Shown here: piece after piece, positions 5,345 through 47,631 of the stretch
Layout: each line of letters begins with the position of its first letter
How positions within the stretch are numbered: position 1 is the stretch's first letter
NCBI GenBank assembly: GCA_905160935.1
Contig: CAJHZI010000435.1
Location: 124,001-188,000, forward strand
Direction of reading: 5' to 3'
Source: Enchytraeus crypticus
Lineage: Eukaryota > Annelida > Clitellata > Enchytraeida > Enchytraeidae
Length of the DNA stretch: 64,000 nucleotides
Notes under the pieces: generated by a model
Seen by the model: the letters and a program-made list of their open reading frames with translations, nothing else
Databases searched by the model: none
What the model was told of the DNA's origin: nothing
Program-made: the position numbers and the translations under genes

Positions 5345-5547
5345 TTAGGCTCTCTTGAAGACGGCTAGCCCCAGTAGAGAAGCCACGGAGGCAGAGATGA
5401 GAGGTAGAGCGGAGACTTGCAGCAGACGTGTGGCGGAGTTACACTTGTCGTGGTAGCACGTGTAACAGTAGGCCAAATTGAACTTCTTACCAGAGTCGTC
5501 AGGACATTGGTCCTGTACCGGTGAACAGCCTCTCTGTACTCTCTTGT
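5345..5547 (-). CDS. Ly-6 gene, terminal coding exon
   Basis: It encodes residues 73-139: RGC, the CYTC and CN motifs, and the C-terminal hydrophobic GPI signal. The acceptor is TTGTTAAACAG|AC. The stop codon is followed directly by a short (GATT)n-like run on the opposite strand. Confidence 0.88.
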
Positions 5548-8844: not shown

Positions 8845-9076
8845 TTTCTCCTCAGCAACAAGCTTAAGTGCTGAAACAAGAAAACAACGAGATATAATTA
8901 GAGGTCTACATTTCATGGTAGAAATAATTTTAGTATATTATTATAATTTTAGTATATTATTGTATCTTAATCAGGATATAAGAAAAACAACAGAAGATAT
9001 TTATGACAGTTGATGGTTGAAAATATTTCATTATATTTAGTTATCACAGCTATTATTATTGACTTTCATTATGAGT

Positions 9077-11895: not shown

Positions 11896-11919
11896 AGAGA
11901 AGCGATGGACAGAGCAGAC

Positions 11920-21944: not shown

Positions 21945-22180
21945 AGATGCGATGACTCAGCACATGATGTGATGACTCTGCACACGATGTGATGACTCAG
22001 CACACGATGACTCAGCACATGATGTGATGACTCAGCAAGAGATGACTCAGCACATGATGTTATGACTCTGCACATGATGTGATGACTCAGCACAAGATGA
22101 CTCAGGACATGATGTGATGACTTAGCACATGATGTGATGACTCAGCAGCACATGATGTGATGACTCAGCACAAGATGCTA
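21945..22180 (-). repeat. 19-20-bp array of TGACTCAGCA in a 3' UTR
   Basis: About 12 units of GATGACTCAGCACATGATGT type begin 4-5 bases past the V-ATPase stop codon. Eight units keep TGACTCAGCA intact (shared core of AP-1 and Maf/antioxidant-response elements), and four carry one change (CTCTGCA, CTCAGGA or CTTAGCA). Confidence 0.85.
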
Positions 22181-22184
22181 TGAT

Positions 22185-22293
22185 TTAAGAGGCTTCACGG
22201 AATTCCTCCCACATCAACTTCAGGATGGAATTGAAACTGAACGGAAGAAATTTGTGTCCATTACCGCCGTAGAATTTACTCTGAAACTCAACC
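22185..22293 (-). CDS. ATP6V0A: V-ATPase a exon 22 (stop)
   Basis: Residues 864-899: [36 protein letters not shown], ending in TAA. WVEFQxKFYxGxGxKFxPFSF is the family C-terminus. Confidence 0.97.
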
Positions 22294-25078
22294 CTACAAA
22301 AACAAGCACACGTTTAAAGATGGTTATTCAAACAGTAAATATAAATAATAAACAATAAGCATAAATAATAAATGAAATAGTATGGAAACGTTCCTAGGGG
22401 TCAGTTTTAAGTCATAGACATTGTGTGAAAAATAAATGTGATGAAAAGGAAAAGGAAAATATTCATCTGACTATGGAACTGCTCATTGAAAATCAAAGGC
22501 CGGTGTGATTCAAACCATGACATCTGAAGATTGCACGGAAGAGAATTCCAGATCTGCGGTGAAGAATGCTGGAAAGAACGATTTGATAGTTTAGAATGTG
22601 AAGGCGGAAATAAGCTAGGTTTCTCAAGAGTAATTAATTAAGAAAACCGAATAACAGAAGGCTGCTTCACTATAATCAAGTGAGACATACAAATTTGTCC
22701 AGGAATGATAATGGACTTATAGGTTAACGAAGCTGTTTTATAAATGATACGCTCTTAATCTTTAATCAGGGCAAATATTTTTAAAGAAGTGCAACATGTG
22801 GATACTTGGAATTACAAAAAATGCTCGCTCAAGTGAATTCTGAAGAAACTGCAACCGATCAATCTCACAGCCAAGAAGGTCTAAGGACAGAGACTTACAA
22901 TATCCCACAATGCGATGCGGGGACGTCCCTGACATCATCCTTGTATGAGGAAACGGACGTTAAACCTTTATTATTATTATTGTTAACCTGGATTGCAACA
23001 AGCTCTGCATCAAACTGCTGCTTTGGTTGTTCGGTCAGTAGATAACCACGCGATGGTCGGATTCGACGTCTTGAAGTAAAACCCTTCATGCTTCTGACCT
23101 TGACGTTAAACTCTCACAAAATTGAGGCTAACAACTGACAAGACGAGCCTACCAGTGAAGACGTAGAGTGTGGAGAAAGGCGGAGAGGCCCTCCATGAGG
23201 AGTAGGATGGCGATGGTGAGCACCGCCCAGGCTGGGAACAGGAAGAACTGAGAAATGATACCGTAGTATCCTGGTGTGATGAACCCAAAGTGCAGCACCA
23301 TCACCCATAACACTTGAGCCAATTCTGTTCCCCAAACATAAATTAGATTAGATATGATGTTTTCTGATTTTTAGTCTATATCGGCAGTAATAATATTGCA
23401 TATTATGTTAAATTTTACTCGTGTTGTATCCGGGGTGCTGAAGAATAGACTAACCGCGGACTTCACATGTCGTAAAAGATGACAAAGCACTAAGATCCAA
23501 ACCAAAGACGGAAGGGTCATTCTATTGGTGAGCGCCTAGGCTCCAGAAATTGCTACAAAATGTTCTCGATGTTCTGAAATGTTCGATGTTCGCAAATGTT
23601 CTAATCCCAGCCTAGTAAAACAGGAATTCAAGGAAAGATTACGATACTTAACTTGTGTTTAATTTGCTTCTTTTTAAAATTATTATATAATATTTTCAGT
23701 AACTTATGTATCCTTGAAACAGAACATCATTGAAATATACCGTTGTTCGTAGAGTTCTAATCTGGGCACCGCGAGTTATAAAATAGCAATAATTATTATT
23801 ATTGAGGATCTTTAAAATAAAACCGAGTGGAAAATCCTCAAGTTGAAAATTTTATGTATTTATTACATTTGATTGTGATAATTGGGCTTATAACTAGTAG
23901 TGTTAGTATGTTCTGCAGCAATCAGTCGGCGAATCAGTAGGTGCCAGGTCAAAATCCAGTGCCCGTCCAATTACTGAACAGCTTTCCGTGCAGGAAACTT
24001 GTCGTAACTTGTTGCTTTTCGTTATTACAAATATATATATGCAAATAATTGCAATAACTGAAAATCATGTGCGATACAGAAAACAATGAAAAATAGAGAG
24101 AGAGAGAGAGTGAGAGCGAGAGGGAGAGGGAAAGAGAAAGAAAGGTTAAATCAATGAATATTCGAGACAATGAAGCAAATAAAATAATTTAAATAAGAAA
24201 GAGTAGAAGATTGTCTAGAATTAGTCTAGAATTCTGCTCAGGGAGTCCATGATACAATTGGCAATTCTCAAAAAACAAAAGCGACAACAATTAATCCTAC
24301 AAAATATTCAAAACGCAGAGATTCAGGTCTCCAAAACTCCATGTGCCAGAGTACTGCCGGCAAACTCGCCGATAATAGTAAAATAATCATAACAATAGAA
24401 TTGAGTGTTATATATATAGTAATAGTAATTAACATACAAAAAAATAGGTAAATAAATAATAACAATAATTGTAAAAATGATAATTTCATAGGTCATCATG
24501 TTGATTGAATGATCGCAGTAATGAGTAAATAGCACCAGTATAGTACCAATACCACTAGACATGTAATTATAAGTACCAGTACCACTAGGCATGTAATTCT
24601 AAGTACCAGTACCACTAGGCATGTAATTCTAAGTACCAGTACCACTAGACATGTAATTCTAAGTACCAGTACCACTAGGCATGTAATTCTAAGTACCAGT
24701 ACCACTAGGCATGTAATTCTAAGTACCAGTACCACTAGGCATGTAATTCTAAGTACCAGTACCAGTAGACATGTAATTCTCTCTACCCACCAGCATGAGC
24801 CAGAGATAGAGCCCAGAGACGCAGATAGGAGGCGGTGTGGGAGATGCAGCCCAGGCAGTACTCTATCGTGTGGATCGCCTGGTGGACAAACAGCTCTCCG
24901 AAATCAAACTGTAAGAATTTATAAACAGATCATTCCAGTCTAGCGATATCTCTTCCATTGGCTGCATTTGTTGAACACTTGTACAAAATTTGTTTATAAA
25001 CAAAATGTAACCAAATAATTAATCGAACTTCTTGAGTAATAGTTTCCATTACTAAACATGAAATTGAAAATGAAAGAA

Positions 25079-25127
<49 letters not shown>

Positions 25128-27387: not shown

Positions 27388-27429
<42 letters not shown>

Positions 27430-30400: not shown

Positions 30401-33400
30401 ATGATGGTTTGGATCTTAGCGCTTTAGTTGCTTTCTACGACACGTGCAGTCATCGGTTGGTCTATTCTTCAGCTACCCGGTCACAATAAGGATAATCAAT
30501 CTATCAATGAAATAAAGAAATTGATCAAGTACATATCAATAAAACCTCCTTTTTTTAAATCTAAAATAAAATAAATTTTAGAATTTTTTCAATATTTTAC
30601 CCGGAAACAATATCTTATCTTATGTGTAACAGGATAGTTTTCTCAAGGAATGACGCCCCTGCCAGTTAGTCGAAGCTGAGGATGGCATAGTGTGCCCACC
30701 TTTTCATAAGCAGAACCCCCGAAGAATAATGGTATATCATGGTAGATGATTTAAAGATCCACTCGTATGAGGACATGAAGAGAAAACGGAAGACAGAGAA
30801 GTGTGGAGGCATTATTTACCATGGACCTGTCAGTGGGCAGTGTACTAAGAGAGAGAGAGAGAGATCTTACCCGGAAGACATGGAATGTATTATCAAAGAT
30901 CACTTCAAGACCTTAAGCTTCTCTCAGATATTAGCATTATCAGACAATGACACATCTAAAACACAGATCTCTACGGGTTGGCTGATCGAATGGTTAGCAT
31001 GCTTGCCAGAAAAGCAGAAGGGCATAAGCTCGAACCGCAGCCAGACTGTCTCTGGCAATGATTCGAAAGAAACGTTAAACTTGGTTTTATATAACTATTT
31101 TTATAATCACAGAATGGAGAGGATTAGCTGGACTCAAAAGGTTACAAATGAGGAAGTTCTGGAGAGAGTTGGCACGGATAGACAGTTTATAAATGTATTA
31201 AGAAATAGGAAGAAGAGATGGATAGGACACATTCTAAGGAGAGAAGGTCTATTAAAAGAGGTCATAGAAGGCAGAATGGAAGGAAAAACAGGCAGGGGCA
31301 GGCCGAGATTAGGTATGTTAGATGATTTAAAGACCCACTCATATGTGGAATTGAAGAGGAAGGCGGAAGACAGAGAAGAGTGGAGGCGGTTATGTACCAT
31401 GGACCTGCCAGTAGGCAGTGCACTAAGAGAGAGAGACAGATATTCACAGTTGATTAACCAGAGATATATTTAGACATATATTCCAACATGAATAATAAGA
31501 CATTGAAAGACACTTTAACAGATTCACAATTAATAATAACGAGACCAATAGAGATATATAAGCATACACACACGCATGGTTAACGAGACAAAGAGAGCAT
31601 ATAAGCATATTCGCACATATGATTAACGAGACAAAAAGAGGTACATAAGCATATACACACATATGATTAACGAGACTCAGGCATATGCCGAAGAACATCT
31701 GAGTGACTCCCATTATGACAGACATCTTCATCTTAAATGAATTCAACCACGTGATGCTGTTCGTCGCCAACATCCAAACCTGAAATCATAACAAATAACT
31801 TAATTCTGATATCAGCCCTGTATTAGGAAACTAACAGTAACCCAGCATTTGCATTACTTTGTAAAACTATAACTTATATTTGTGTTCGGGTTGCCTGAAA
31901 AATAGACCAACTGGTGATTACACGCGTCGTAGAAGGCGACTAAAGCACTAAGATCCAAACAAAACGTGAGCCATCTGTATAGAGAGCTGTTGGTAACTCA
32001 TTGTAAACGTATTGTTCATACGCTGTAGGGGGTCTGAATCTAGTTGAAATGAAGAGAGAAGAAATAACAAGAACTCCACAAACAGTAACTAATGCAAGGA
32101 AATTCTGCAGCAAGCTCCGTACATGTGTAGTATGTGGATAACTACATGCAAAACAATAAGATCAAATGAAATGACTATATAAATATTAGGGGTGTTTAAA
32201 ATGTGATGCAAATTAATACAATATATTATTACACCATCCATAAATACAGAGTTTTGATTATTGCTTCTTTGATCTGCTATTCGCAGATTTACTTTCAAAG
32301 TCGAAACTAACCTGAGATGAAACTCTTTATAAACTATAGTATATAACAGAAAGTTTATTCCAAAAATATCGTCATACCGGATCCATTCCAAATGGATAGG
32401 GATATCCCGTGTAGTCCCAGCCCATGTTAGGATTCAGCTGAAATGAGCTGATCTCTTTAAGATCTGTGGATCTGTAGCATAAAGTAATTGCACTCAATGG
32501 CAAGGTCATGTCTTCAACAGAATGTGATTTTGTTTGTCAAAAAGACAAAGAAAGAAGGAAGACAATATTCACTGAATATAATGTTACTTGTATGTTACGT
32601 TATGCACTAGGTTATATTTATCATACATGTGTTATGAATCATATTTTTATTATTTTTTAGTATAGGTTATTCGTGATGCTTGTAATTTAGATCACGTTTT
32701 GCGTGCAATGTTATTTGCATATTATTCATAATGTTTATTATTTTAGCTCACGTGTTGTTCGCAAATGTTATTTGCATGTTGCGATGTTTGCTATTTCAAT
32801 CACGTGTTGTACGACATGTTATTTGCATGTTCTGATGTTGTTATTTTAATCACGTGTTTTACGCAATGTTATTTGCATGTTATTCATGATATCTGTTATT
32901 TTAGCTCAAGTGTTGTACGACATGTTATTTGCATGTTATTCGTGCTGTTCTCGGACTCACATGTTGTAGGTGGTGGTGTTTGGCTTCCAGGCAGTGCCGT
33001 AGATGTTGAATGAGATGGAGAAGATGTCGTTGTACATGATACCGGAGTAGATTGAGAACAATCCCATCATCAGGATTACATAGCGTCCTCCAAAGAACAT
33101 GTCAAACACCTGCCAATCAATCAATTAGATACGTATCGAACATCAGATACAAAATTAATTAATCTATGAAAACATATCGAATATCTGATATGACAAGCAA
33201 TCAGTAAAGTAAAAGCTGCAAAAAACTAATGTTAACGTCAGTTTCCTCACTCGAAAGCGAGGTCAGTGCCGGCTGAGTCCAGTATTTGAACCCGCACATA
33301 CTGATCCGCGGTCGAATATCTTACCTAAATTGCCACTGGCTCCAGCCAAAGCAAAAACAAGTTGAACATAAATCAATCAATCTGACCAAACAAGTCGAGA

Positions 33401-34940: not shown

Positions 34941-35005
<65 letters not shown>

Positions 35006-35025
35006 TATATACATATATTTACATG

Positions 35026-35116
<91 letters not shown>

Positions 35117-38100
35117 CATAAACCAACCTCTTTCCACTATGGGTCTAAATTTTGACTCTCTTGCCTTGGATACTGGACTTGATCTCGCTTTCTCTTGGTT
35201 ACTGTTTTGGTCTCTCTTTCTCTTGTGGTCTCTGTGTAATCAGTCATCATCGTGTGGTGCTTTGGCGCCTATTTGTATAGAGTCTGCAAGAGACGTCCCT
35301 GACATTGCCTTACGGCGAGGAACCAGACGTTAAATTCTTAGTGATTGATATATATATATATACATGTATACTCTCTTTTTCCTTCTCTCTAGTGTCATTT
35401 AAATTGAAAGGTTCGATGTACACATTTCTACTTAAACTGATCTTGTTTGCTAAATAATGAATGAACGTTCAGAAAAGGCTGACCCAATGCTAAAGGCTAC
35501 AGGCTATATATTAACTATTGCAACATACACCTTACATGGTTTTAATGCAAGACCAGGCTACTGAAGAATAGACCAACTGATGGAATGTTCTGATAAATTT
35601 GTGTTGAATTGAGGTTTATTGATTCAATTTTGTTTGTTCATCTCACTAATAGTGATGATATATTTTTCGATAATAAATATTGGCTACTACTAATATATGT
35701 ATGTGTTGATTTTGTGCCAAATTTGTTGACTAGGTGTTATCTACCTGGGTTGACCTCTTTGTACTTAGGCACACCGTACGAGCTGACGATCTCCTGGTAG
35801 ATCTTGGTGAACTTGTTGGTCCTGAAGTACGTGGGTGGGTTCAAGTGATGCTCCATCTCGTTCAGTATAGGATCCACTTCACTGCCGCTAGCGATCTGTG
35901 ACAATCAACGTCAACTGTAAGTGTTCTGAAGAGAGAGCTAATGAATATGTAAAGAAAATTTATTTAGCTTATTTAGCAGATAGATGCAATAAGTTTTTAT
36001 AGCTCTTCAATTTGGATAAATATGTAATTAGATCACTGAATTGTTGTTGTTATTGTTGTGATAATGAAGCATGTTACATTATTCATATGTATTACTACAA
36101 AGACATACTATTGAACTAATAATACAAATATTGTGCTTATTTCATATACTTGTATAATAGAAGAACATTTGACTTACACAAATCAGTAACTAGCTTTATA
36201 AATCTTTGAATTAGATTTTGATCAATTCTCAATTAGATTTTTTAGGCCTGAATTTAATGCATGTAAGCTTCTTTAGATCATTCAATGTATCGAGAGATAC
36301 CGAAATCCAAATGCCGGACACACTTTTTATGCAAGATTAAACATTTTATACATACAGAACCAATTGTTTAAATTGATATTGTTATCATTAGTATTTTTTA
36401 GTCCAAATTTTAAGAAACCGGAGTTTGATAAAATGGATTCGAGTACATTATTATTATTCTCATTCTTATTATTACTAGAGTAAACAGGATAGTTTTCTCA
36501 GGGAATGACCCCCATGCACAGTAAATGTTTGTCGCAGCTGAGGAAGGCATATATAGCACACCTCGTTGTATCCATAATCCAAAAGAAAATGGTACATAAC
36601 AACAAGAATGAGTATTGCTAGATGAGTTAAAGTTCCACTCACATGTAGACATGTAGAGGAAAACGGAAGACAGAGAAAAGTGGAGGTATTATATTCCATG
36701 GACCTGCCAGTAGGCAGTGCAATGAGATAGATTGATTACTATTATACTAATATATAAAATATAATCGATAAATCTTTAATATATAATCGATCTATAGATA
36801 GATTATTATACTGATTTTTAAATTTATTTATTTTTGTTATTATTATTAATATTATTAGTAATAATAATAATAATAATAATAAATATAATAAAAATATTAT
36901 TGTTACTATTATTATTATTTTTATCAGCATCATCATCATCATATCCTTAAAATACTAAAATTATTTTAAATATTGTGATTAATATTGACCTTGACCTACC
37001 TGTCCTCGCTTCAGAGCTTCCTTGACCTTGTCAAGGTCAGCCACAGGCACCCAACCCTCCCCCACCAGTAGAGAGTTGATGACGTCAAAGTCCAGCTGAT
37101 TCATAATGTGGTAGATAGCCTTGACCTTTCTCACAATGATCATCCAATCACGAAGGCTTTCTGCCACTTCTGTCATAAGCTTATCTCGATGTTCGCAGGT
37201 CTGCAGCAAAACCTGAAACGGACGAGAAATCACCAATGATCAATCCCAAATAATGGAAAAGAAATAAATAGAAAACGTAAAGGAAGTAATTATAAAGCTG
37301 GAAAAGCTAATGTTAACGTCAGTTTCCGCACTCGAAAGCGATATCAGTGACGGGCGAGCCCAGGATTTGAACCCCGCACAAGTTATCAAGCGTAACTTGG
37401 TAATCTCTTGGCTTCAGGATCATCACACATCTTCAAACCGAAAAATATCTCGCCAACAACTACTATCACAATTCTCGAGTGATTGGTTAGTTTGTTAGTT
37501 TGTTGTTCAGTAGGTTGGTTGGTTATTTAGTTTACTGATTTATTGATTGGTTGTTTGCTTGTTTGATTGATTGATTATTCATTGAGATTATTCATTGATT
37601 TATTGATTGAATACAAGAGATACAAACGATTTTAAGGTCCTCTACTCTTGCTATAACACCGTTCATCGTTTCTTTTCTCTCCTCCGCCATCTCTGGTATG
37701 TGATATAAAGTAGCATGATATCTACAAGTACATGATAACATCTAGCACTACACACGCTAATGTGATATAAAGTAGCATGGTATCTACAAGTACATAATAA
37801 TATCTAGCACTATGAACGGTTATGTGATATAGAGTAACATAGTATCTACAAGTACATAAAAACATCCAGCACCATAATCAGATATATGATATAGAGTCGT
37901 ACGCTATCTGCTAATACATGAAAACATCCGATTCTATACTCAGGTATCTAAAATAAGCGGATATATGCAAATACCTGACATAATCCGGCTCTATAACAGC
38001 GTAAATGATACTCTATTCTATTTTAGATTTTTCACTAGTAAATCTGTTGATGTTTTCCTGATGATAATTATTAATCTCAACACGAAAAAAGTCATTGTTA

Positions 38101-39697: not shown

Positions 39698-39746
<49 letters not shown>

Positions 39747-42700
39747 AGATTATTTAAAGATTCATTCATATGTGGACATGAAGAGGAAACGGAAGATAGA
39801 GAAGAGTGGAGGCGTTATATACCATGTACCTGCCAGTAGGCAGTGCACTAAGAGAAAGAGAGAGAATTAAGCCGTATGTAGTCATTTCTAATGTCATTAC
39901 TATCAATATTTTATTCGGTACTTTATTAGTAATAATCGTTAAAATCAACCATTCGGTACTGAGTACTTTTTAAGTAATAATCGCTACAATCAACCCCGCA
40001 TTTAGTACTTATTAGTAATAATCGTTGCAATCAACCCGTGTTCAGTACTTATTTGTAATGATCGCTACAATCAATCCGTGTTCAGTACTTATTAGTAATA
40101 ATCGTTGCAATCAACCCGTGTTCAGTACCTATCAGTACTTGCTCAGTACTCATCAGTACTCATCAGTACTTGTTCAGTACTCACAGTGGCCGGGTCCTCC
40201 AGGTCGAGTTCGATGTCCTCATACTTGACGTGCACGTTGCCCCTGCAGGCTCTCCACAACATCTGCTGGAAGTAGGGCGCCTTCTCCCTCAGGATCACCC
40301 CTGTCACGTGACTGTCATCAACACACTACACTGTCTAGGATCACTCCCGTCACGTGACTGTCATCAACACACTACACTGAAACAGCTGGTAAAGCTAATG
40401 TTAACGTCAGCTTCCCCACTCTAAAGCGATGTCAGTGACGGGCGAGCTCAGGATTTGAACCCCGCACATACGGATCCGCGGTCGAATATCTTACCAGCAT
40501 CGCCATGTGCAATAATATAAATTAATTATCTAATATAAACAATGTACTGATAGAACAGTGCTAGTTTAATAGCGTGTAAAAGCCTGACGGACCTTCTGAA
40601 TGAAGTAGAATTTACATCATAACTATAAAACGTAAATAAGCTACTCTGTAGCCAGTCAATAGACAGATAAAAGACAAATGGACCATGTTAGTAATGCAAC
40701 CTACTAATGACGTAGTCCTAAGATGGTTTCTACGTGAATTCTACTAACGTCCTTGACAGCTATATCCTGTTCACAGTGAATTAAATGGCGAACAGTGACT
40801 AACACGTTTGCATTCCTATCTACTACATTTTGTTCTAATTTACTAAGTTTTTAATATTTTATTATCATATACATGGAACTTATCAAAACATCATAACTTA
40901 GTGCTTGATTTGATCACGGCTCGTCTATTAGTCAGTAATGAGGAATAAAACATCAACCTAAATGTTACATCTCTAACTGAAAACAGGTTAAGAAACTGCA
41001 GCGAACTATATTAGAAATGACCAAAATGTGCCTACCCAAGCTCTGAATGAGATTCTCCGCCTACAGGAACGATGTTGTCTGTGTCCACGTGAACAACTAG
41101 ATCCACATCTCTCTGAAATATTAAGCGCAATAGTAAGACAATAAAAATGTAATATGAGTTGTCTACAGAACTGATACACAGAAGTCATCAAGGAGAGAAA
41201 TTAATTCTCCGAGAAATAGCTAATTTTGTCGTCTCTTTCTAATAAATATAATAAATATATTTTATTCGGTACCCCCGAAGTCAAATCCTTTTACAGTGTA
41301 GCTCATCAAATACAATAATGTCATAAAATAATTCCTCATCAAATACAATAATGTCATAAAATAATACCTCATCAAATACAATAATGTCATAAAATAATAC
41401 CTCATCAAATACAATAATGTCATAAAATAATACCTCATCAAATACAATAATGTCATAAAATAATACCTCATCAAATACAATAATGTCATAAAATAATACC
41501 TCATCAAATACAATAATGTCATAAAATAATACCTCATCAAATACAATAATGTCATAAAATAATACCTCATCAAATACAATAATGTCATAAAATAATACCT
41601 CATCAAATACAATAATGTCATAAAATAATACCTCATCAAATACAATAATGTCATAAAATAATACCTCATCAAATACAATAATGTCATAAAATAATACCTC
41701 ATCAAATACAATAATGTCATAAAATAATACCTCATCAAATACAATAATGTCATAAAATAATACCTCATCAAATACAATAATGTCATAAAATAATACCTCA
41801 TCAAATACAATAATGTCATAAAATAATACCTCATCAAATACAATAATGTCATAAAATAATACCTCATCAAATACAATAATGTCATAAAATAATACCTCAT
41901 CAAATACAATAATGTCATAAAATAATACCTCATCAAATACAATAATGTCATAAAATAATACCTCATCAAATACAATAATGTCATAAAATAATACCTCATC
42001 AAATACAATAATGTCATAAAATAATACCTCATCAAATACAATAATGTCATAAAATAATACCTCATCAAATACAATAATGTCATAAAATAATACCTCATCA
42101 AATACAATAATGTCATAAAATAATACCTCATCAAATACAATAATGTCATAAAATAATACCTCATCAAATACAATAATGTCATAAAATAATACCTCATCAA
42201 ATACAATAATGTCATAAAATAATACCTCATCAAATACAATAATGTCATAAAATAATACCTCATCAAATACAATAATGTCATAAAATAATACCTCATCAAA
42301 TACAATAATGTCATAAAATAATACCTCATCAAATACAATAATGTCATAAAATAATACCTCATCAAATACAATAATGTCATAAAATAATACCTCATCAAAT
42401 ACAATAATGTCATAAAATAATACCTCATCAAATACAATAATGTCATAAAATAATTCCTCATCAAATACAATAATGTCATAAAATAATACCTCATCAAATA
42501 CAATAATGTCATAAAACATACTCATCAATACAATAATGTAAAAATAATACCTCATAAAATACAATCATGTCATAAAATAATACCCAATCAATAAACAATA
42601 ATGCATGAAACCATACCTCATCAATACAATAAGTCAGAAAACAATACCTCATCAAATACACTAATGTCATGAAACAATACCTCATCAAATACACTAATGT

Positions 42701-45700
42701 CATGAAACAATACCTCATCAAATTCACTAATGTCATGAAACAATACCTCATCAAATACAATAATGTCATAAAACAATACCTCATCAAATACAATAATGTC
42801 ATAAAATAATACCTCCTCAAAATAACAATAATGTCATGAAACACTACATCTTCAAATACAATAATGTCCATAAATAACCTCATCAAATACATAATGTCAT
42901 AAAATAATACCTCCTCACATAACAATAATGTCAGGAACAATACCTCATCAACTACAATAATGTCATGAACCTACCTCATCAATACAATCATGTTGAAACA
43001 ATACCTCATCCCATAAAATAATTCATAAACTAATACCCTCACAATCACAAAGTCATAAAATATACCTACCTCATCAAATACAATAATGTCATGAAACAAT
43101 ACCTCATCAAATACAATAATGTCATAAAACAATACCTCATCAAATACAATAATGTCATGAAACAATACCTCATCAAATTCACTTATGTCATGAAACAATA
43201 CCTCATCAAATACAATAATGTCATGAAACAATACCTCATCAAATACAATAATGTCATAAAACAATACCTCATCAAATACAATAATGTCATGAAACAATAC
43301 CTCATCAAATACAATAATGTCATAAAATAATACCTCATCAAATACAATAATGTCATAAAATAATACCTCATCAAATACATTATGTCATGAAACAATACCT
43401 CATCCAATACAATAATGTCATAAAATAAACCTCATCAAATACAATCTTGTCATGAAACAATACCTCATCAAATGTCACTTAAGTGTCCTGAAACATACCT
43501 CATCAATACATAATGTCATAAAACATAACCTCATCAAATACAATAATGTCATAAAATAATACCTCATCAAATACAATAATGTCATGAAACAATACCTCAT
43601 CAAATTCACTTATGTCATGAAACAATACCTCATCAAATACAATAATGTCATGAAACAATACCTCATCAAATACAATAATGTCATAAAACAATACCTCATC
43701 AAATACAATAATGTCATGAAACAATACCTCATCAAATACAATAATGTCATAAAATAATACCTCATCAAATACAATAATGTCATGAAACAATACCTCATCA
43801 AATACAATAATGTCATAAAATAATACCTCATCAAATACAATAATGTCATGAAACAATACCTCATCAAATACAATAATGTCATGAAACAATACCTCATCAA
43901 ATACAATAATGTCATGAAACAATACCTCATCAAATACAATAATGTCATAAAACAATACCTCATCAAATACAATAATGTCATGAAACAATACCTCATCAAA
44001 TACAATAATGTCATAAAATAATACCTCATCAAATTCACTAGTATCATGAAACAATACCTCATCAAATACACTAATGTCACACTACAATTTACAATACCTC
44101 GTCGAAGAAGCTGACGGTTTTCTCCATGATATATCTCAGTTCTATCAACTCGTTCATGTTACGGTTTAGTTCAGTCATACTGGACGCCACCTCCCTCATC
44201 TTATCTGATATCTCCATCACCTTCACCTGACAACAGCATCATAACTTCATTAACAACTGATACCTGATAACAGTTAATAACTTATAGCATTATAACTTCA
44301 TTAACAACTGACTTCTCCTAACAGTTAATAGCTTATAGCATCATAACGCCATTAACAACTGATTTATGTTAACAGTTAACAGCTTATAGCATCATAACTT
44401 CATTAACAACTGATTAATGATTAACAGTTAATAAATTATAGCATCATAACTTCATTAACAACTGATTAATGGTTAACAATTAATGACCTATAGCATCATA
44501 ACTTCATTAACAACTCATTTCTCTTAACAGTTAAAAACTTATAGCATTATTGCTTCATTAACAACTGATTTCTGCTAACAGTTCATGATTTCCAGCATTA
44601 TAATGCCATTAGTAACTGATATCTGCTGGCAGTTAATAACGACTGAGTTGGCTACTGAATAAGTGATAAGGTCAAATTTAACGTCAGCACTGGATCTGAA
44701 CCTTGCCCTTACTTAGATGGCCCCGGGAACCCAACTGATCTAGATAATACATGTAGACAGATGGACTCTACACAAGTTGAGACAAGAACAAGGTTCATAC
44801 TCTGCCGTGTTAGACACCATCGCCTGTGAGTTCATAAATCTTTACTTATCAACTTTCCTTCGTTTTCATTGTCATCTCGCTCTCTTAGTGCACTGCCTAA
44901 TGGCAGGTCCATGGTATATAGCGAATTCACTTATCTCTATCTTCCGTTTTCCTCTCCATGTCCACATACGACTTGGTCCTTTAATCATCAATAACATTCC
45001 TTTTGATATACCATTATTCTTGGGGAATTCTGCTTATGACGAGGTGGACCCCTATGCCTTCCTCAGCTTTGACTAATATTTTAGTGGGCAGGGAGTAATT
45101 CTGCTAACAGGGGCGTAATTCCCTGAGAAAACAATCCTGTTTACCCAGGATCCTGTTTCCTTGTCATAGGATTAGTGTATTAATACATAGAATGAGGTTT
45201 GCAATTTTTCATGATATTTGTCAAATGAATTATATCACTATAAACAGGTTGACAATATTTCCATAAAATATCTAGTTCGTGTAATAGTGTTTGTGAGTAT
45301 CTAGAGAGAAAGCTGTTATGCTAAACAATAGAAATATTATGACCTTCATTCACTAACTCAATTTATAGTGCCCTTCGTGCTAACCTAGAAGTATTTTTTT
45401 GCGTTAGAATAAAAATGTTTTGCTGGTTTTCTTTTTTATATTACTTTAATTCTGATTATATTGGTGTTAACTTGAACCTCTAGAGCTGTTATTTCATTGG
45501 CTGGGGGTACGGGAGGTGACTCCGGCTTTTTCTTCATCTTTAATCCACATTTTTCTAATTCTCTGTTCAGGAATCCTGAGCAAATCAAAATAAAATAAAT
45601 CAATATATGGTTACACAATTTCTTGAAAAATCGATAACATTAGTTTAATTACTCCGAAGGCTAATGCACACATAACTCAGGAGTAGATTTGTACGTACAA

Positions 45701-47631
45701 CTGATGAGAACGAATTAACCTCTGGCTTAGTGAACAAATAATTCATAATCGTGTATAGATCATAACTTATGAATTGAGAGTAATACATCTATATTGACAT
45801 CATCATCGTCCCTTGAATACTAGGATCTGGACTCTGCATACGAATTCACCTTCACTTTTCCTTCCTACTCACTAACCGGATGCCCTTTCTGACATTGGAT
45901 CTTAGTGCTTTGTCGCTTTTTTCGACACGTACAGTCTACTGTTAGTTTATTCTTCAGCAACCCTATCACAAAACGGGTAGCTATTAACTGATGCATCTAT
46001 ATTATAATAGTACCATAGTAAATCTTATATTATAAATCTAACTGACTCCTATACCTTATAGATCTTGCTTGACGTACTACCATATTCAAACGAAACTTCG
46101 TTAAGCTTGACACCATTGTTATGTCACTTTCCATATCATATGAAGTGAGTCATGTATTTAAAATATTAGTCCAATTGAATGCTGTAAACATTTCAGAAGT
46201 CGAAATACCGTTATAGTGCTGTTCAAGATCACTCAAGATCAAAATCAAATTAAATCTAAATCAAATAAAAATCATGATAAGGTTAGTGGCGCTGATCTGA
46301 GAGTTAAATCTCGGACATTCACTGGACTGGTCATACGGAAACTGGTCTAAATTGAATAGCGGTTTAAACATGTGGTATTAAGTGTGATAGATATCAACAT
46401 AGTTGATCATTTCACTATAATGCCTGTTTACTTTTACTCATGATAAACCTCAGCTATATCTAATTTCTTTAAACTAGGAATAATTTTAATAAATTTTTAA
46501 TTAAAAACGAAGATAAACTTCGAAAATCATACTGAAATCTAAATTTATCAGAATTTATAAAGATCTTTAAAAAGCAATACAGCATTACAGTATTAGTACA
46601 ACAGAAAAGTAGCAGTTCAATAGTACAGTTGCACATTAGTAGTACAGTACTATAGTAGCAGTACAATAGTACAGTAGTACAGTACTACAGTAGCAGTACA
46701 GTACTACAGTAGCAGTACAGTACTACAATAGCAAGACAGTAGTACATCAGTACAGTAGCAGTACAGTACTACAGTACCAATACAGATGTACTAACTGAAT
46801 TCTTTCTCTATATCGTCGCATCGCCTCACTTCGTTAACGAATCTTCTTGAGTAGCTATTCAAGTCAATGTTCAGCTAAAATATAAAAATGCATGTATTAC
46901 CTTAAATATTCATCATCATCATCATCTTCATCATCATAATCATCACCTTCTTCTTCTTCTTCTTCTTCTTCTTCTTCTTCTTCTTCTGCTTTTTCCCTTG
47001 AATCACACTTAACTAGGGTATGAATTTTAAAAAATTGTAATAAATTCTGGAATCTAGACACTCACCAAGAGAATGCCCTTTCTGACGTTGGTTTAGATCT
47101 TAATGCTTTGCCGCCTTTTACGACACGTGCAGTCCACGACTGATCTATTCTTCAGCAACCCGGAAGCAACACGGCATTATCTTATTTATCAACGAGGAAG
47201 AATTTAAATTCAGCGAGGATAAATTTATTTCCCTATGATTTTCAACTATTCTACACTTAATAAATAGAGCACATTACGAAACTTTAAAAGAAACTCTACA
47301 TAATTGTATAAGTATTAATTCACTAACTAAATTGCAGTCCGAAATAAAGAAATCATGAGACGTTCTGCAACATCGTCAAAACTTAGAATGACTATAATTA
47401 AATGTATTATTACTTATTGATTCATTGATTTATAGATTTATTTATAAATTATCTTAAGATTTATCTCTTAATTATCAAGTATTTATTATTAATTTGACTG
47501 CTACATACATCTCTGAAGTAAATTTTTCCCGTCTCACCAAGCTCTGCAATACATGAGTAGGTCGCCTCTTTGGGGAGGATGACCTGAACTAAGGTCATAT
47601 CCTCACTCTGGAACATGGAACCCTTCGTCAT
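22185..47631 (-). CDS. ATP6V0A: V-type H+-ATPase subunit a, 22 coding exons
   Basis: The reconstructed protein is 899 residues and matches the 100-116-kDa subunit a of the V0 sector along its whole length. It forms the proton half-channels beside the c-ring. Exons (- strand): 47631-47509, 46874-46796, 45575-45478, 44226-44098, 41112-41036, 40311-40185, 39070-38988, 37721-37628, 37212-37000, 35895-35745, 34833-34697, 33109-32961, 32471-32378, 31779-31661, 30309-30158, 28696-28611, 28215-28123, 27338-27246, 26404-26201, 24908-24791, 23324-23153, 22293-22185. They total 2700 nt, and all GT-AG junctions agree in phase. Residues 1 to about 390 are the cytosolic arm; the rest is the membrane domain. 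R797 and H805 in [13 protein letters not shown] correspond to yeast Vph1 R735 and H743; E851 and R861 correspond to E789 and R799. N486 (NIST) is a luminal sequon. The cytosolic loop at 665-767 is longer than in vertebrate paralogues. A 5' UTR exon is expected above 47657. Confidence 0.96.
22905..22985 (+). mobile_element. SINE family B fragment
   Basis: GACGTCCCTGACATCATCCT and GAGGAAACGGACGTTAAACC match the family body and are followed by a short (TTA)n. The copy lies in the last V-ATPase intron. Confidence 0.55.
23153..23324 (-). CDS. ATP6V0A: V-ATPase a exon 21
   Basis: Residues 807-863: [14 protein letters not shown], then [18 protein letters not shown]851 and R861 match Vph1 E789 and R799. 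Confidence 0.97.
23415..23570 (+). mobile_element. GAT-family fragment
   Basis: The blocks GTTGTATCCGGGGTGCTGAA, GACTTCACATGTCGTAAAAG and GAGCGCCTAGGCTCCAGAAA are in order; there is no GAT tail. Confidence 0.65.
24090..24150 (+). repeat. (GA)n microsatellite
   Basis: An imperfect GA run in intron 20; no LINE junction is visible next to it. Confidence 0.8.
24540..24790 (-). repeat. 30-bp array at the exon 20 donor
   Basis: About eight units of ATTCTAAGTACCAGTACCAC plus TAGGCATGTA lead up to the donor. On the coding strand the junction CATGCTG|GTGGGTAGAGAGAAT, then TACATG, can be aligned with the unit CATGCCTAGTGGTACTGG, then TACTTAGAATTACATG. The resemblance is partial. Confidence 0.85.
24791..24908 (-). 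CDS. ATP6V0A: V-ATPase a exon 20 (essential arginine)
   Basis: Residues 768-806: [40 protein letters not shown]797 is the equivalent of yeast Vph1 R735, which is required for proton transport. A 30-bp tandem array begins at the donor. Confidence 0.97.
25068..25125 (+). repeat. (GA)n microsatellite
   Basis: A long GA run in intron 19; no LINE junction is visible. Confidence 0.85.
25475..25690 (-). mobile_element. GAT-family copy with (GAT)n tail
   Basis: In the minus-strand sense it runs from CTAGGCGCTC-type blocks through the conserved coding-like end (TGTATCCCGACCCTGGTTAA) to a GATGATGAT tail at 25480-25504. Confidence 0.7.
26201..26404 (-). CDS. ATP6V0A: V-ATPase a exon 19 (loop)
   Basis: Residues 700-767: acidic, with KKKK in the middle and an EIEEEE end just before FDFGE. 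It is phase 0-0 and 204 nt, so it is another frame-neutral cassette. Confidence 0.85.
26460..26575 (-). mobile_element. Possible tRNA-like SINE
   Basis: On the minus strand a B-box-like GATTGAATCCCCG follows a TTGATAGCACAGTTGTCATA head, and TAAACATGGCTC closes it. Single copy; weakly supported. Confidence 0.35.
27246..27338 (-). CDS. ATP6V0A: V-ATPase a exon 18 (loop)
   Basis: Residues 669-699: [31 protein letters not shown]. It lies in the cytosolic loop before the catalytic helices. Phase 0-0 and 93 nt make it skippable without loss of frame. There is no strong homology; it is accepted on splice sites and phase. Confidence 0.8.
27390..27545 (-). mobile_element. GAT-family copy with (GAT)n tail
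   Basis: The tail is (CAT)n on the plus strand (27390-27445). It is followed by the family's CCTTGGATCCCAGTTTAGGT end block, and the internal part is deleted. Confidence 0.7.
27550..27960 (+). mobile_element. 5S rRNA-like SINE or LINE tail
   Basis: Bases 27594-27668 resemble the 3' two-thirds of 5S rRNA: GAAGTTAAGCTCGCTCG (box A region), GGTTAGTACTT, GGGCGACCACCTTGGAAGAC and CGAGTGTTG. A tRNA-like stretch (GGATTAGCGCACTCGGTTAA) precedes it. Downstream comes a LINE-type 3' segment (GGAGGAAATAACGAAAACTA..., CATGTGGTATGT) also seen at 32040-32160, ending in an A-rich (CAAAAAAA)n tail. A 5S-derived SINE3-type element fits. It is not a functional 5S gene, because the 5' third is replaced. Confidence 0.55.
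28026..28105 (+). repeat. (GA)n microsatellite near the exon 17 donor
   Basis: A GA run with GGAGAGTGGAGAGA interruptions ends about 18 bases from the exon 17 donor. Confidence 0.85.
28123..28215 (-). CDS. ATP6V0A: V-ATPase a exon 17
   Basis: Residues 638-668: [31 protein letters not shown], the membrane helix with the CVPWxLLxxPLxLR signature. Confidence 0.95.
28228..28515 (+). repeat. Pentanucleotide (AATAC/AATGC)n array
   Basis: The array mixes AATAC and AATGC units over about 285 bp, fills most of intron 16 and ends about 13 bases before the exon 17 acceptor. Confidence 0.9.
28611..28696 (-). CDS. ATP6V0A: V-ATPase a exon 16
   Basis: Residues 609-637: [29 protein letters not shown]. 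It corresponds to the INMFLF...Q luminal loop and is moderately diverged. Confidence 0.9.
28855..28995 (+). mobile_element. Dispersed element, family D
   Basis: The blocks CCAGTAACTTAC, TGTGACGGTAGCTCGAGTGT, GAGTCGTCTTGAAGAGAAG and AAACACACTACAACCTA recur at 52235-52420 (-) and 56735-56880 (+). It is probably a SINE or MITE of unknown type. Confidence 0.6.
29505..29650 (-). mobile_element. GAT-family copy with short GAT tail
   Basis: A (CAT)n start on the plus strand, the AATCCTAGTTTAACGCGTGT block and a CTCTCTGCCCCACACTACAT block are present; the 5' part is missing. Confidence 0.6.
29695..30095 (+). mobile_element. Chimeric GAT-head/GA-tail element
   Basis: It starts with the head shared with the GAT family (CCCGTGTTGTG, CTGCAGAATAG, GACACGTGTACG). 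It then continues into the GA-family body (CCTCAGAAGCCATA, GAATGGATAAGGCATAGAC, GAGTATGAACATGT, CACTTGGCAGTGCACTGAAG) and a short GA tail. It lies in intron 15. Confidence 0.6.
30158..30309 (-). CDS. ATP6V0A: V-ATPase a exon 15
   Basis: Residues 558-608: [38 protein letters not shown]. The FIPE block and membrane helix are conserved. It joins exon 14 in phase 2 to rebuild NHIYF. Confidence 0.93.
30365..30495 (-). mobile_element. GAT-family fragment
   Basis: It carries GAGCCTAGGCGCTCACCAAG, GATCTTAGCGCTTTAGTTGC and TTCTACGACACGTGCAGTCA, without the tail. Confidence 0.65.
30615..30866 (+). mobile_element. Short GA-tailed element (SINE-like)
   Basis: The head AACAGGATAGTTTTCTCAAG and body GAAGCTGAGGATGGCATAG join a 3' end identical in layout to the LINE C-terminus at 31320-31440 (GATGATTTAAAGATCCACTC, CCATGGACCTGTCAGTGGGC, then (GA)n). 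Other copies are at 36478 and 44875. A SINE that borrows a LINE tail, or an internally deleted LINE, would look like this. Confidence 0.65.
30975..31100 (+). mobile_element. tRNA-like SINE
   Basis: GGCTGATCGAATGGTTAGCA (A-box region) and AAGCTCGAACCGC (B-box region) at tRNA spacing are followed by a SINE body ending GAAACGTTAAACTTGG. Confidence 0.5.
31105..31440 (+). pseudogene. LINE reverse transcriptase C-terminus, GA family
   Basis: The open frame reads [72 protein letters not shown]. This is the C-terminal zinc-knuckle-less tail typical of non-LTR polyproteins (RWIGHILR...GRPR...W). It runs to CACTAAGAGAGAGA at its 3' end. The 5' part is absent. Confidence 0.8.
31535..31680 (-). repeat. 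44-bp array at the exon 14 donor
   Basis: About 3.5 units. On the coding strand every unit starts GTCTCGTTAA(T/C)CAT and continues TGTGTGTATATGCTTAT or close variants. The first unit begins inside the exon (codons for SLVNH) and contains the authentic donor. Confidence 0.9.
31661..31779 (-). CDS. ATP6V0A: V-ATPase a exon 14
   Basis: Residues 519-557: [39 protein letters not shown]. The [10 protein letters not shown] block is diagnostic. The donor AATCATAT|GTGTGT is weak, and the sequence around it is tandemly repeated downstream. Confidence 0.93.
31880..32160 (+). mobile_element. GAT-family head joined to a LINE tail
   Basis: The blocks GTGTTCGGGTTGCCTGAAAA and AAGCACTAAGATCCAAAC are followed by the LINE-type 3' segment seen at 27760-27860 (AAATAACAAGAACTCCACAA, AAGGAAATTCTGCAGC, CATGTGTAGTATG). 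Confidence 0.55.
32378..32471 (-). CDS. ATP6V0A: V-ATPase a exon 13
   Basis: Residues 487-518: [31 protein letters not shown]. It is the luminal loop before the PYPFGxDP block. Confidence 0.94.
32690..32960 (-). repeat. ~55-bp array at the exon 12 donor
   Basis: About five units. On the coding strand the junction CCTACAACAT|GTGAGTCC is the first unit; later units read CGTACAACACTTGAGC, CGTAAAACACGTGATT, CGTACAACACGTGATT and CGAACAACACGTGAGC. Each is followed by AACATGCAAATAACAT. Confidence 0.92.
32961..33109 (-). CDS. ATP6V0A: V-ATPase a exon 12
   Basis: Residues 438-486: [32 protein letters not shown]. It ends in the luminal loop with sequons at N481 and N486. The donor AACAT|GTGAGT is the first unit of a tandem array. 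Confidence 0.95.
33225..33350 (-). mobile_element. SINE family A
   Basis: The copy reads GTTAACGTCAGTTTCCTCAC, GAACCCGCACATACTGATCC and CCACTGGCTCCAGCC in reverse orientation, in intron 11. Confidence 0.7.
33540..34150 (-). pseudogene. Decayed LINE endonuclease-to-RT linker
   Basis: Minus-strand frames with stops read [26 protein letters not shown] and later [12 protein letters not shown]-like text. This is the pattern of an apurinic-like endonuclease C-terminus (QIDYILI) and the basic linker that follows it. It is strongly degraded. Confidence 0.5.
34150..34425 (+). other. Unidentified coding-like stretch
   Basis: The plus-strand frame [39 protein letters not shown], then (after a shift) [20 protein letters not shown], looks more coding than chance. 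It has no match I can name and no clear splice sites. It ends in the AAAGCACACTACAACCTA block of family D, so it may be part of a longer mobile element. Confidence 0.3.
34448..34592 (+). mobile_element. SINE family A
   Basis: GGCTGGAGTCAGTGGCCGTG, ACCGCGGATCAGTATGTGCG and CGTCACTGACATCGCTTTCG are in order, with a near-intact B-box (GATCAAATCC). Confidence 0.72.
34697..34833 (-). CDS. ATP6V0A: V-ATPase a exon 11
   Basis: Residues 392-437: [20 protein letters not shown], then a hydrophobic stretch and RLSKRESKG. It carries the first two membrane helices and the conserved FPFLFxVMFGD. Confidence 0.95.
34935..35118. repeat. (CT)n-(TA)n compound microsatellite
   Basis: A CT run is followed by TA runs with TATATTTA and ACATATATA interruptions. 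It lies in intron 10, about 100 bases upstream of the exon 11 acceptor. Confidence 0.9.
35240..35365 (+). mobile_element. SINE family B
   Basis: GCTTTGGCGCCTATTTGTAT and GACGTCCCTGACATTGCCTT, then GGCGAGGAACCAGACGTTAA, end in GATTGATATATA. Confidence 0.65.
35745..35895 (-). CDS. ATP6V0A: V-ATPase a exon 10
   Basis: Residues 342-391: [31 protein letters not shown]. The PPTYxxTNKFT block leads into the first membrane helix. Confidence 0.95.
36478..36735 (+). mobile_element. Short GA-tail element (SINE-like)
   Basis: It has the same head and tail blocks as 30615-30866 (AAACAGGATAGTTTTCTCAG, GCTGAGGAAGGCATATATAG, CCATGGACCTGCCAGTAGGC, AGTGCAATGAG). The GA tail is lost. Confidence 0.65.
36835..36945. 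repeat. (ATT)n/(AAT)n inverted microsatellite
   Basis: ATT and AAT runs in opposite orientation can pair; a short (CAT)n follows. Confidence 0.8.
37000..37212 (-). CDS. ATP6V0A: V-ATPase a exon 9
   Basis: Residues 271-341: [56 protein letters not shown]. It is the distal part of the cytosolic arm with the conserved KVKAIYH and GWVP blocks. Confidence 0.95.
37300..37385 (-). mobile_element. SINE family A fragment
   Basis: GCTAATGTTAACGTCAGTTT, GCGATATCAGTGACGGGCGA and CAGGATTTGAACCCCGCACA are present; the head is truncated. Confidence 0.65.
37500..37600 (+). repeat. (GATT/GGTT)n degenerate run
   Basis: Short GATT and GGTT repeats in intron 8. Confidence 0.6.
37628..37721 (-). CDS. ATP6V0A: V-ATPase a exon 8
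   Basis: Residues 239-270: [31 protein letters not shown]. The acceptor TACTTGTAG|ATATCATGC is fixed by frame and by homology to the GFxASLYPCPE block of other members. The acceptor and the first eight codons are repeated as a 62-bp array upstream. Confidence 0.9.
37694..37985 (-). repeat. 62-bp array copying the exon 8 acceptor
   Basis: Four to five units. On the coding strand each contains TACTTGTAG|ATAYCATGC, then TACTTTATATCACAT, which is the acceptor and first eight codons of exon 8. The unit next to the exon is the functional site. The second unit differs from it at one of 33 bases and the third at about four; distal units are more diverged. Confidence 0.93.
38140..38280 (+). mobile_element. 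GAT-family fragment
   Basis: TGTGTCTGGGCGGCCGAAGA, CTGCACGTGTCGTAAAAGAC and GAGCGCCTAGTCTCAAGAAA; no tail. Confidence 0.65.
38330..38715 (-). mobile_element. GAT-family copies, head to tail
   Basis: A (GATGAC)n-like tail at 38355-38375 belongs to a plus-strand piece. The 38470-38715 copy is minus-strand and nearly complete up to the CCGGATACAACACGGG end. Confidence 0.6.
38988..39070 (-). CDS. ATP6V0A: V-ATPase a exon 7
   Basis: Residues 212-238: [28 protein letters not shown]. FIxFFQG and RVKKIC are family hallmarks. Confidence 0.94.
39497..39550 (+). repeat. (GA)n run
   Basis: GA run after GGGCAGAATACTAAAGGGAG, a possible degraded GA-family junction. Confidence 0.6.
39700..39870 (+). mobile_element. 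(CT)n followed by GA-family 3' end
   Basis: A CT run is followed by GATTATTTAAAGATTCATTC, GACATGAAGAGGAAACGGAA and CCATGTACCTGCCAGTAGGC, then AGTGCACTAAGAGAAAGA. Confidence 0.7.
39955..40184 (-). repeat. Nested array at the exon 6 donor
   Basis: On the coding strand the donor ACT|GTGAGTACTGAACA is followed by tandem GAGTACTGAT units. Larger ~48-bp units then follow, each ending in AGTACTGAAYRCGGGTTGAT, so the donor heptamer GAGTACTG seeds both levels. Confidence 0.82.
40185..40311 (-). CDS. ATP6V0A: V-ATPase a exon 6
   Basis: Residues 169-211: [40 protein letters not shown]. The reading frame requires the acceptor GATGACAG|TCACGTG; the AG eleven bases later breaks the frame. An almost identical acceptor plus exon start sits 47 bp upstream in the intron. 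Confidence 0.93.
40291..40385 (-). repeat. 47-bp direct duplication of the exon 6 acceptor
   Basis: Two copies on the coding strand: TGTTGATGACAG|TCACGTG, then ACAGGGGTGATCCT (functional), and the same with ACGGGAGTGATCCT in the intron. The intron copy includes 21 nt of exon-like sequence and then meets a stop if used. Confidence 0.92.
40385..40505 (-). mobile_element. SINE family A
   Basis: GCTAATGTTAACGTCAGCTT, GTGACGGGCGAGCTCAGGAT and ATACGGATCCGCGGTCGAAT; it directly abuts the duplicated exon 6 acceptor. Confidence 0.68.
41036..41112 (-). CDS. ATP6V0A: V-ATPase a exon 5
   Basis: Residues 144-169 (first part): [20 protein letters not shown], then SHSELG. It is a variable linker and has the lowest conservation of the arm. 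It is accepted because phases 0 and 2 fit both neighbours and SELG|HVTGVI rebuilds the conserved LGxVxGVI block. Confidence 0.85.
41302..44097 (-). repeat. 33-bp minisatellite, about 85 copies, at the exon 4 donor
   Basis: The coding-strand unit is TTTGATGAGGTATTRTTTYA plus TGACATTATTGTA. It fills about 2.8 kb of the 2985-bp intron 4. The block at 41302-42515 is nearly uniform (GTATTAT... version); the block at 42516-44097 next to exon 4 is diverged, with mostly GTATTGTTTCATGA units. Because the unit is 33 bp and lacks stops in several frames, it produces ORFs of up to 427 codons that are artefacts. Confidence 0.97.
44098..44226 (-). CDS. ATP6V0A: V-ATPase a exon 4
   Basis: Residues 101-143: [20 protein letters not shown], ending TVSFFDE, a long arm helix. 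Both splice junctions lie at the edge of tandem arrays whose units resemble the junction itself. Confidence 0.93.
44231..44640 (-). repeat. ~60-bp array at the exon 4 acceptor
   Basis: About 6.5 units of AACAGTTAATAACTTATAGC plus ATCATAACTTCATTAACAAC plus a variable spacer. On the coding strand the acceptor CTGTTGTCAG|GTGAAG matches CTGTTATCAGGTATC in the adjacent unit. Confidence 0.85.
44875..45160 (-). mobile_element. GA-tailed SINE-like element
   Basis: The most complete short copy: on the minus strand, GTAAACAGGATTGTTTTCTC, GCTGAGGAAGGCATAGGGGT, GAATAATGGTATATCAAAAG, CCATGGACCTGCCATTAGGC, then AGTGCACTAAGAGAG. It lies in intron 3. Confidence 0.7.
45478..45575 (-). CDS. ATP6V0A: V-ATPase a exon 3
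   Basis: Residues 68-100: [20 protein letters not shown], followed by a Pro-rich linker and ITALE. It is a coiled-coil arm segment. Confidence 0.9.
45800..45990 (-). mobile_element. GAT-family copy
   Basis: A short (CAT)n, CCTTGAATACTAGGATCTGG, GATGCCCTTTCTGACATTGG and GACACGTACAGTCTACTGTT, in reverse orientation. Confidence 0.62.
46280..46440 (+). mobile_element. SINE family C fragment
   Basis: GAGAGTTAAATCTCGGACAT, TCACTGGACTGGTCATACGG and GATAGATATCAACATAGTTG; headless copy in intron 2. Confidence 0.6.
46590..46790 (-). repeat. (AGTACAGTAGC)n-type array beside the exon 2 donor
   Basis: Short AGTAC/AGTAGC repeats start within about 10 bases of the donor TTCA|GTTAGTAC. Whether the junction seeded it is unclear; only TAGTAC is shared. 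Confidence 0.75.
46796..46874 (-). CDS. ATP6V0A: V-ATPase a exon 2
   Basis: Residues 42-67: [20 protein letters not shown], the conserved [10 protein letters not shown] helix of the cytosolic arm. The donor is TTCA|GTTAGT. Confidence 0.9.
46917..47180 (-). mobile_element. GAT-family copy with compound tail
   Basis: (CAT)n and (TTC)n tails at 46917-46990 are followed by TCCCTTGAATCACACTTAAC, CACTCACCAAGAGAATGCCC and CGACACGTGCAGTCCACGAC, in intron 1. Confidence 0.65.
47509..47631 (-). CDS. ATP6V0A: V-ATPase a exon 1 (start)
   Basis: Residues 1-41: [16 protein letters not shown]..., ending FRD|GTATGT. The exon begins at 47657 after TTCTGTTTGTAG, leaving 26 nt of 5' UTR. I chose MTKGSMF; the second Met (47616) fits the family N-terminus almost as well. 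Confidence 0.93.

What the first reader, a model, noticed from the sequence alone, without database searches (positions are those of the whole stretch)
22185..47631. Intronic minisatellites of the V-ATPase gene are anchored on splice junctions
In five places a tandem repeat clearly has the authentic exon-intron junction as its terminal unit, and later units are copies of that junction: donors of exons 4, 12 and 14, and acceptors of exons 6 and 8. Weaker cases are the exon 4 acceptor and the donors of exons 6 and 20. These are not arrays that merely lie near exons: the repeat unit contains the splice site itself, with coding sequence on one side. I know of no described mechanism that makes minisatellites at exon boundaries as a rule. 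Possibilities are slippage at splice-site-like sequence, R-loop or transcription-linked duplication, or selection for redundant splice sites. Tandem duplication of AG|GT-bearing segments has been proposed as a route to intron gain, which makes the pattern relevant to intron birth.
Basis: partly seen in the sequence, partly recalled or inferred. Interest (0 to 1): 0.92.

Follow-up and report, generated by a model that had tools for sequence, protein, structure and literature searches.

The report
Splice-junction minisatellites in a worm
In a small soil worm, short tandem repeats inside introns often include a copy of the neighbouring exon edge with its splice site, a pattern already described in amphioxus, and here it looks mostly like a by-product of repeats forming all over the introns.

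Summary
The gene is a 21-exon V-ATPase subunit a gene on the minus strand. The genome is very probably that of the annelid Enchytraeus crypticus.

Donors of exons 4 and 12 are probable. The three weaker cases are weak.

In 109 introns of three V-ATPase genes and 13 myosin loci, 22 of 218 junctions have a near copy in the adjacent intron; the reverse-complement control gives 0 of 218. But 10-19% of intronic windows are locally duplicated too. Arrays spanning a junction number 11 of 103, against 8.4 expected from random placement. Arrays across or within 30 bases of a junction are about twofold in excess: 38 against 19.7, or 29 against 16.5 without the window gene.

The kind is known: amphioxus 'mirages' (PMC3087553, passages). 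I saw no annelid report in the listings searched. Best reading: tandem duplication throughout introns, tolerated across junctions because the true exon copy stays outermost, with a mild bias to intron ends.

The parts
22185..47631 (-). V-ATPase subunit a gene, coding part, 21 exons: E1 47631-47509, E2 46874-46796, E3 45575-45478, E4 44226-44098, E5 41112-41036, E6 40311-40185, E7 39070-38988, E8 37721-37628, E9 37212-37000, E10 35895-35745, E11 34833-34697, E12 33109-32961, E13 32471-32378, E14 31779-31661, E15 30309-30158, E16 28696-28611, E17 28227-28123, E18 26404-26201, E19 24908-24791, E20 23324-23153, E21 22293-22185
   Evidence: tblastn and spliced reading, 872 codons, all introns GT-AG; homologues. 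The exon 3 donor has a second possible choice.
40291..40379 (-). 46-base unit, 1.9 copies, spanning the E6 acceptor (21 exon bases inside)
   Evidence: firm:
37697..37929 (-). 62-base unit, about 3 copies, spanning the E8 acceptor (25 exon bases inside)
   Evidence: firm; array found only here apart from two weak pieces on C400
31537..31676 (-). 44-base unit, 3.2 copies, spanning the E14 donor (16 exon bases inside)
   Evidence: firm; array found at no other place in the genome search
41302..44106 (-). 33-base unit, about 85 copies by TRF (41302-44079), running up to the E4 donor and 9 bases into exon 4
   Evidence: probable; short tests p 0.03, 6 of 217
32667..32968 (-). about 56-base unit, 5 copies by TRF (32667-32949), running up to the E12 donor and 8 bases into exon 12
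   Evidence: probable at best; p 0.16, 4 of 217
40122..40187 (-). short-unit array at the E6 donor, 3 exon bases
   Evidence: intron-side copy only:
44235..44640 (-). 51-base unit, 7.9 copies, ending 8 bases from the E4 acceptor
   Evidence: weak:
24542..24780 (-).
   Evidence: weak:

Best explanation
Introns of this annelid carry many local tandem duplications. Some duplicated segments straddle an exon-intron junction. They are tolerated because the outermost copy still serves as the true junction (the first copy for donors, the last for acceptors), so the coding sequence stays intact while further copies lie in the intron as decoys and diverge there. This gives mirage-type arrays at about one junction in ten of those sampled. 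A mild bias of array edges toward intron ends is seen in the sample; its cause is open. Shown: the copies, their frequency, their fall-off into the exon, the chance-level number of spanning arrays, the edge excess. Inferred: slippage or unequal exchange as the duplicating step, correct splicing at the outermost site, and purifying selection as the reason for the fall-off into exons.
For: 22 of 218 junction windows copied, reverse-complement control 0 of 218; copies of exon sequence fall off as 22, 15, 6, 2, 0 of 218 at 0, 14, 28, 42, 56 bases into the exon; equal numbers at donors and acceptors (11 and 11 of 109). Spanning arrays 11 of 103 against 8.4 expected (P 0.19) and 10-19% of intronic windows locally duplicated. 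Two arrays searched are locus-born: the E14 array has 1 match in the genome, the E8 array its own place plus two weak pieces. GT/AG in copies not specially kept, 41 of 57.
Against: Arrays abutting junctions (from 6 bases inside to 30 outside) are in clear excess, 27 against 11.3 (P below 1 in 20,000), also without the window gene (21 against 9.6, P 0.0003), which plain uniform duplication does not predict. Copying varies by gene: 9 of 34 in one V-ATPase gene, 0 of 38 in another.
Confidence: 0.68

Rival explanations
1. A junction-linked process (R-loops, transcription- or exon-chromatin-linked breakage, slippage at splice-site-like sequence) seeds tandem duplications preferentially at exon edges; spanning arrays are fresh products and abutting arrays are decayed ones.
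For: Edge excess within 30 bases of or across a junction: 38 against 19.7 for 103 arrays; 29 against 16.5 (P 0.0004) without the window gene; 17 of 36 against 10.0 (P 0.0046) in the strict set without it. The E4 array reaches the junction although TRF ends it 19 bases short.
Against: No excess of arrays that actually span a junction. Copy density falls gradually over 150 bases, 0.187 to 0.105, without a peak at the junction. Several abutting arrays at acceptors are T-rich, near-simple repeats. Dilution of mid-introns by transposons was not excluded.
Confidence: 0.22
2. Copies are kept by selection because redundant splice sites help splicing.
For: In 14 of 20 arrays with an intact copy a decoy scores at least as well as the true site by hand-set weights; 68 of 70 motif-matching units in intron 4 keep GT.
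Against: GT/AG intact in 41 of 57 copies, like neighbouring positions. The E6, E8 and E14 units of 46, 62 and 44 bases are not multiples of 3, so decoy use would shift the frame unless balanced (inference).
Confidence: 0.04
3. The copies are assembly artefacts.
For: Hybrid long- and short-read assembly (PMC8460440, passages); raw reads were not available. One amphioxus mirage was misassembled in a draft genome (PMC3087553, passage).
Against: Copies differ (82-95% matches by TRF); arrays of 90-230 bases would lie within single long reads (inference); the pattern recurs in many loci and at both intron ends.
Confidence: 0.03

Closest known systems
[quoted passage not shown] PMC3087553 and PMC3902484, passages
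   Same: Tandem copies of an exon-intron boundary with part of the exon, at donors and acceptors; copied AG/GT signals; authentic junction outermost.
   Different: An annelid, not a cephalochordate. Here sampled over 218 junctions, with a placement null, instead of single genes. Splicing and length instability, tested in amphioxus, are not tested here.
Internal tandem repeats at exon-intron boundaries of recent human paralogues (PMC2812944, passages)
   Same: Minisatellite-sized repeats at exon-intron boundaries.
   Different: There they change gene structure and can form new introns; here all mapped introns keep old positions.
Intron gain by tandem duplication of AG|GT-bearing segments (potato RdRp, PMC4974935, search listing and abstract start only; Rogers' model as cited in PMC3087553)
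   Same: Tandem duplication of splice-site-bearing sequence.
   Different: No new intron seen: mapped intron positions recur in the paralogous genes.

Membership tests
Mirages | tandem copies that span an exon-intron boundary and include exon sequence | tested here: met
   E6 acceptor, E8 acceptor, E14 donor; 22 of 218 junctions over all loci
Mirages | both 5' and 3' boundaries affected | tested here: met
   11 donors and 11 acceptors of 109 each
Mirages | minisatellite-sized units (10-72 bases in Adh3, 150-160 in globins) | tested here: met
   periods 44, 46 and 62 in the firm window cases; 16 to 169 among arrays spanning by at least 6 bases in the first 86 introns
Mirages | regular splicing not disturbed | not testable with these tools
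   no RNA data held
Mirages | length instability between haplotypes | not testable with these tools
   one assembled haplotype, no reads
Intron gain by tandem duplication | a new intron at the duplicated site, absent from relatives or paralogues | tested here: not met
   56 of 60 introns of three V-ATPase a genes mapped, at homologous places
Dispersed repeat or transposon family | array unit occurs at many genomic places | tested here: not met
   E14 array 1 match; E8 array its own place plus two weak pieces on C400; E6 array query not answered; others not searched

The most novel reading that the evidence does not exclude
Independently of amphioxus, this annelid lineage has a duplication process linked to exon edges that has put mirage arrays on about a tenth of splice junctions and draws minisatellites toward junctions about twofold, leaving very many near-perfect decoy splice sites that the worm must ignore and that could feed new introns or exons.
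Probability: 0.22. Interest if true: 0.75.

Novelty: new member of a known kind. Interest (0 to 1): 0.5.

Why it matters
If about a tenth of junctions carry copied splice sites in a laboratory soil worm, RNA reads can show directly how true sites are told from equally strong decoys and whether such arrays ever give rise to introns. It also moves mirages from a cephalochordate oddity to a pattern in a distant phylum, and suggests that much of it is tandem duplication meeting purifying selection at exon edges.

Tried and rejected
Amphioxus as the source was my first guess from the mirage literature. Rejected: the Branchiostoma V-ATPase proteins listed are 49% identical and the mitochondrial COX1 groups with enchytraeid annelids (support for that wider group 92/88, below the starred level). 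The LINE reverse transcriptase showed no named taxon among the 120 hits listed. Rfam gave no match at gathering score.

Shuffle p values alone were judged too harsh for long arrays such as E4 and were supplemented by consensus-unit tests. The 65-base windows contain intronic array sequence, so their high scores show colinearity up to the junction, not exon copying by themselves. In one search the random-intronic pool contained the arrays themselves, so I use its junction comparison only. Windowed background weights long arrays, so an array-placement null was added. A first myosin script failed on an option and found nothing; it was rerun.

Dropped before counting: 4 of 60 V-ATPase introns not mapped (C125 intron 17; C357 introns 4, 5 and 17); myosin introns with poor splice or alignment score or a query gap over 25 residues; myosin loci without two mapped neighbouring exons; duplicate myosin junctions from overlapping loci; arrays with period under 9 or microsatellite-like units.

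Full report
What is there. The finding lies in a gene for V-ATPase subunit a on the minus strand, with 21 exons from 47631 to 22185, an 872-residue open frame and 20 GT-AG introns. It is 47% identical to a human a1 sequence recalled as a probe and at most 50% identical to each of the 120 best homologues listed. All splice sites are inferred from homology, phase and GT-AG, not from RNA. The exon 3 donor has a second possible choice.

Which organism. The genome is held as G000, 524 Mb in 802 contigs; the window is C342:124001-188000. Mitochondrial COX1 (C802; read with code 5) is 93% identical to Mesenchytraeus and to a Lumbriculus record and falls with enchytraeid sequences in a tree (support 92/88). 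C802 is 15,205 bases long, the mitochondrial size given for Enchytraeus crypticus, whose published genome is 525.2 Mb with 35.41% GC (PMC8460440, passages). The window has 35.5% GC by its base counts.

Check of the eight cases. With a 28-base query (16 exon + 12 intron bases) against the rest of the adjacent intron, E6 acceptor, E8 acceptor and E14 donor score 24, 26 and 24 against shuffled means of 8.5, 9.9 and 10.1 (p 0.005, the floor of 200 shuffles). E6 donor scores 12 against 7.9 (p 0.005), E4 donor 12 against 9.5 (p 0.03), E12 donor p 0.16, E19 donor p 0.10, E4 acceptor p 0.28 (40 junctions examined). Against array consensus units, 0 of 217 other junctions equal E6 acceptor, E8 acceptor, E14 donor or E6 donor; 6 equal E4 donor, 4 E12 donor, 31 E19 donor and 39 E4 acceptor. 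Longer alignments show the E4 array running colinearly through the donor with 7 of 9 exon bases matching, and the E12 array reaching 8 exon bases. So three of the five clear cases are firm, two probable, and the weaker three weak.

Is it general? The exon probe found two more V-ATPase a genes, on C125 and C357, and 19 and 17 of their 20 introns were mapped at homologous places. Adding 53 introns from 13 myosin loci gives 109 introns. Of 218 junction windows (14 + 14 bases), 22 have a copy scoring at least 14 in the adjacent 500 bases; the reverse-complement control gives 0 of 218. By group: window gene 3 of 40, C125 0 of 38, C357 9 of 34, myosins 10 of 106. Windows 14, 28, 42 and 56 bases into the exon give 15, 6, 2 and 0 of 218. 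Junction copying is thus common in this sample, though not in every gene. The sample is two protein families, not the genome.

Is it special to junctions? Minisatellite arrays are common in these introns: 103 in 69 of 109 introns. Depending on distance, 10-19% of non-simple intronic windows have a local copy; less matched counts gave 15-25% and 19% (V-ATPase introns). If arrays are dropped at random in their own introns, with one unit allowed to reach into the exon, 8.4 should span a junction by at least 6 bases; 11 do (P 0.19). In contrast, 27 arrays have an edge between 6 bases inside and 30 bases outside a junction where 11.3 are expected (0 of 20,000 simulations). Across or within 30 bases the count is 38 of 103 against 19.7; without the window gene 29 of 82 against 16.5 (P 0.0004); in a stricter set of longer, non-simple units without the window gene 17 of 36 against 10.0 (P 0.0046). 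By group the same count is 9 against 3.2 (window gene), 3 against 2.2 (C125, P 0.38), 10 against 5.3 (C357) and 16 against 9.0 (myosins). Copy density falls gradually from 0.187 at 20-62 bases to 0.105-0.122 beyond 150 bases, with overlapping confidence intervals. I read this as a mild bias to intron ends. Dilution of mid-introns by transposons is a plain possible cause that I could not test, and several abutting acceptor arrays are T-rich near-simple repeats.

How it most likely works. A tandem duplication that straddles a junction leaves the protein intact if splicing keeps to the outermost copy, so selection should remove duplications inside exons but not these (inference). Shown: the copies, their frequency, their fall-off into the exon, locus-specific arrays for E14 and nearly so for E8, and GT/AG intact in 41 of 57 copies, no better than neighbouring positions. 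Inferred: slippage or unequal exchange, and correct splicing at the outermost site. In 14 of 20 arrays with an intact copy, a decoy scores at least as well as the true site by simple hand-set weights, so how the true site is chosen is a good question.

What is known. Tandem repeats spanning exon-intron boundaries were named mirages in amphioxus Adh3 and reported in its globin genes: both boundary types, units of 10-72 and 150-160 bases, copied AG/GT signals in many units, splicing apparently undisturbed, and a proposed role in intron gain (PMC3087553, passages). TnC and PGBD5 are further amphioxus cases (PMC3902484, one passage). In humans, tandem repeats at exon-intron boundaries of recent paralogues can form new introns (PMC2812944, passages). 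An earthworm paper describes intronic minisatellites in metallothionein genes; the passages I saw do not describe arrays spanning junctions (PMC12783039). Searches for amphioxus mirages, for minisatellites with annelids or Enchytraeus, and for splice-boundary repeats listed no mirage report outside amphioxus; several lists were cut (20 of 512, 25 of 30, 10 of 37), and the library lacks most subscription papers. The original Adh3 paper I know only as cited.

Verdict. Interest is moderate: the frequency and the decoy question deserve a genome-wide study.

Noticed in passing
21946-22177: A 20-base-unit array, about 12 copies, begins 7 bases after the stop codon of the V-ATPase gene: an array next to a coding boundary that is not a splice junction.
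   Followed up: partly
The copied part is intronic only.
   Followed up: partly
L009-L013 (V-ATPase a gene on C357): This paralogue has 9 of 34 copied junctions, with both ends of introns 11 and 14 affected, while the C125 paralogue has 0 of 38; why the load differs so much is open.
   Followed up: no
5903-7501 and 59007-59612, minus strand: LINE-type reverse transcriptase frames (Pfam RVT_1); the first is up to 63% identical to unnamed metagenome proteins.
   Followed up: partly
5348-5551 and 8611-8937, minus strand: Cysteine-rich frames that look by eye like Ly6/uPAR-type secreted or anchored proteins (recalled resemblance, no search).
   Followed up: no
about 40430-40520: A stretch with a tRNA-like B-box string in intron 5; similar translated strings recur near 11900, 18000 and 62400 and in L011-L012, suggesting a dispersed SINE-like repeat (by eye).
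   Followed up: no
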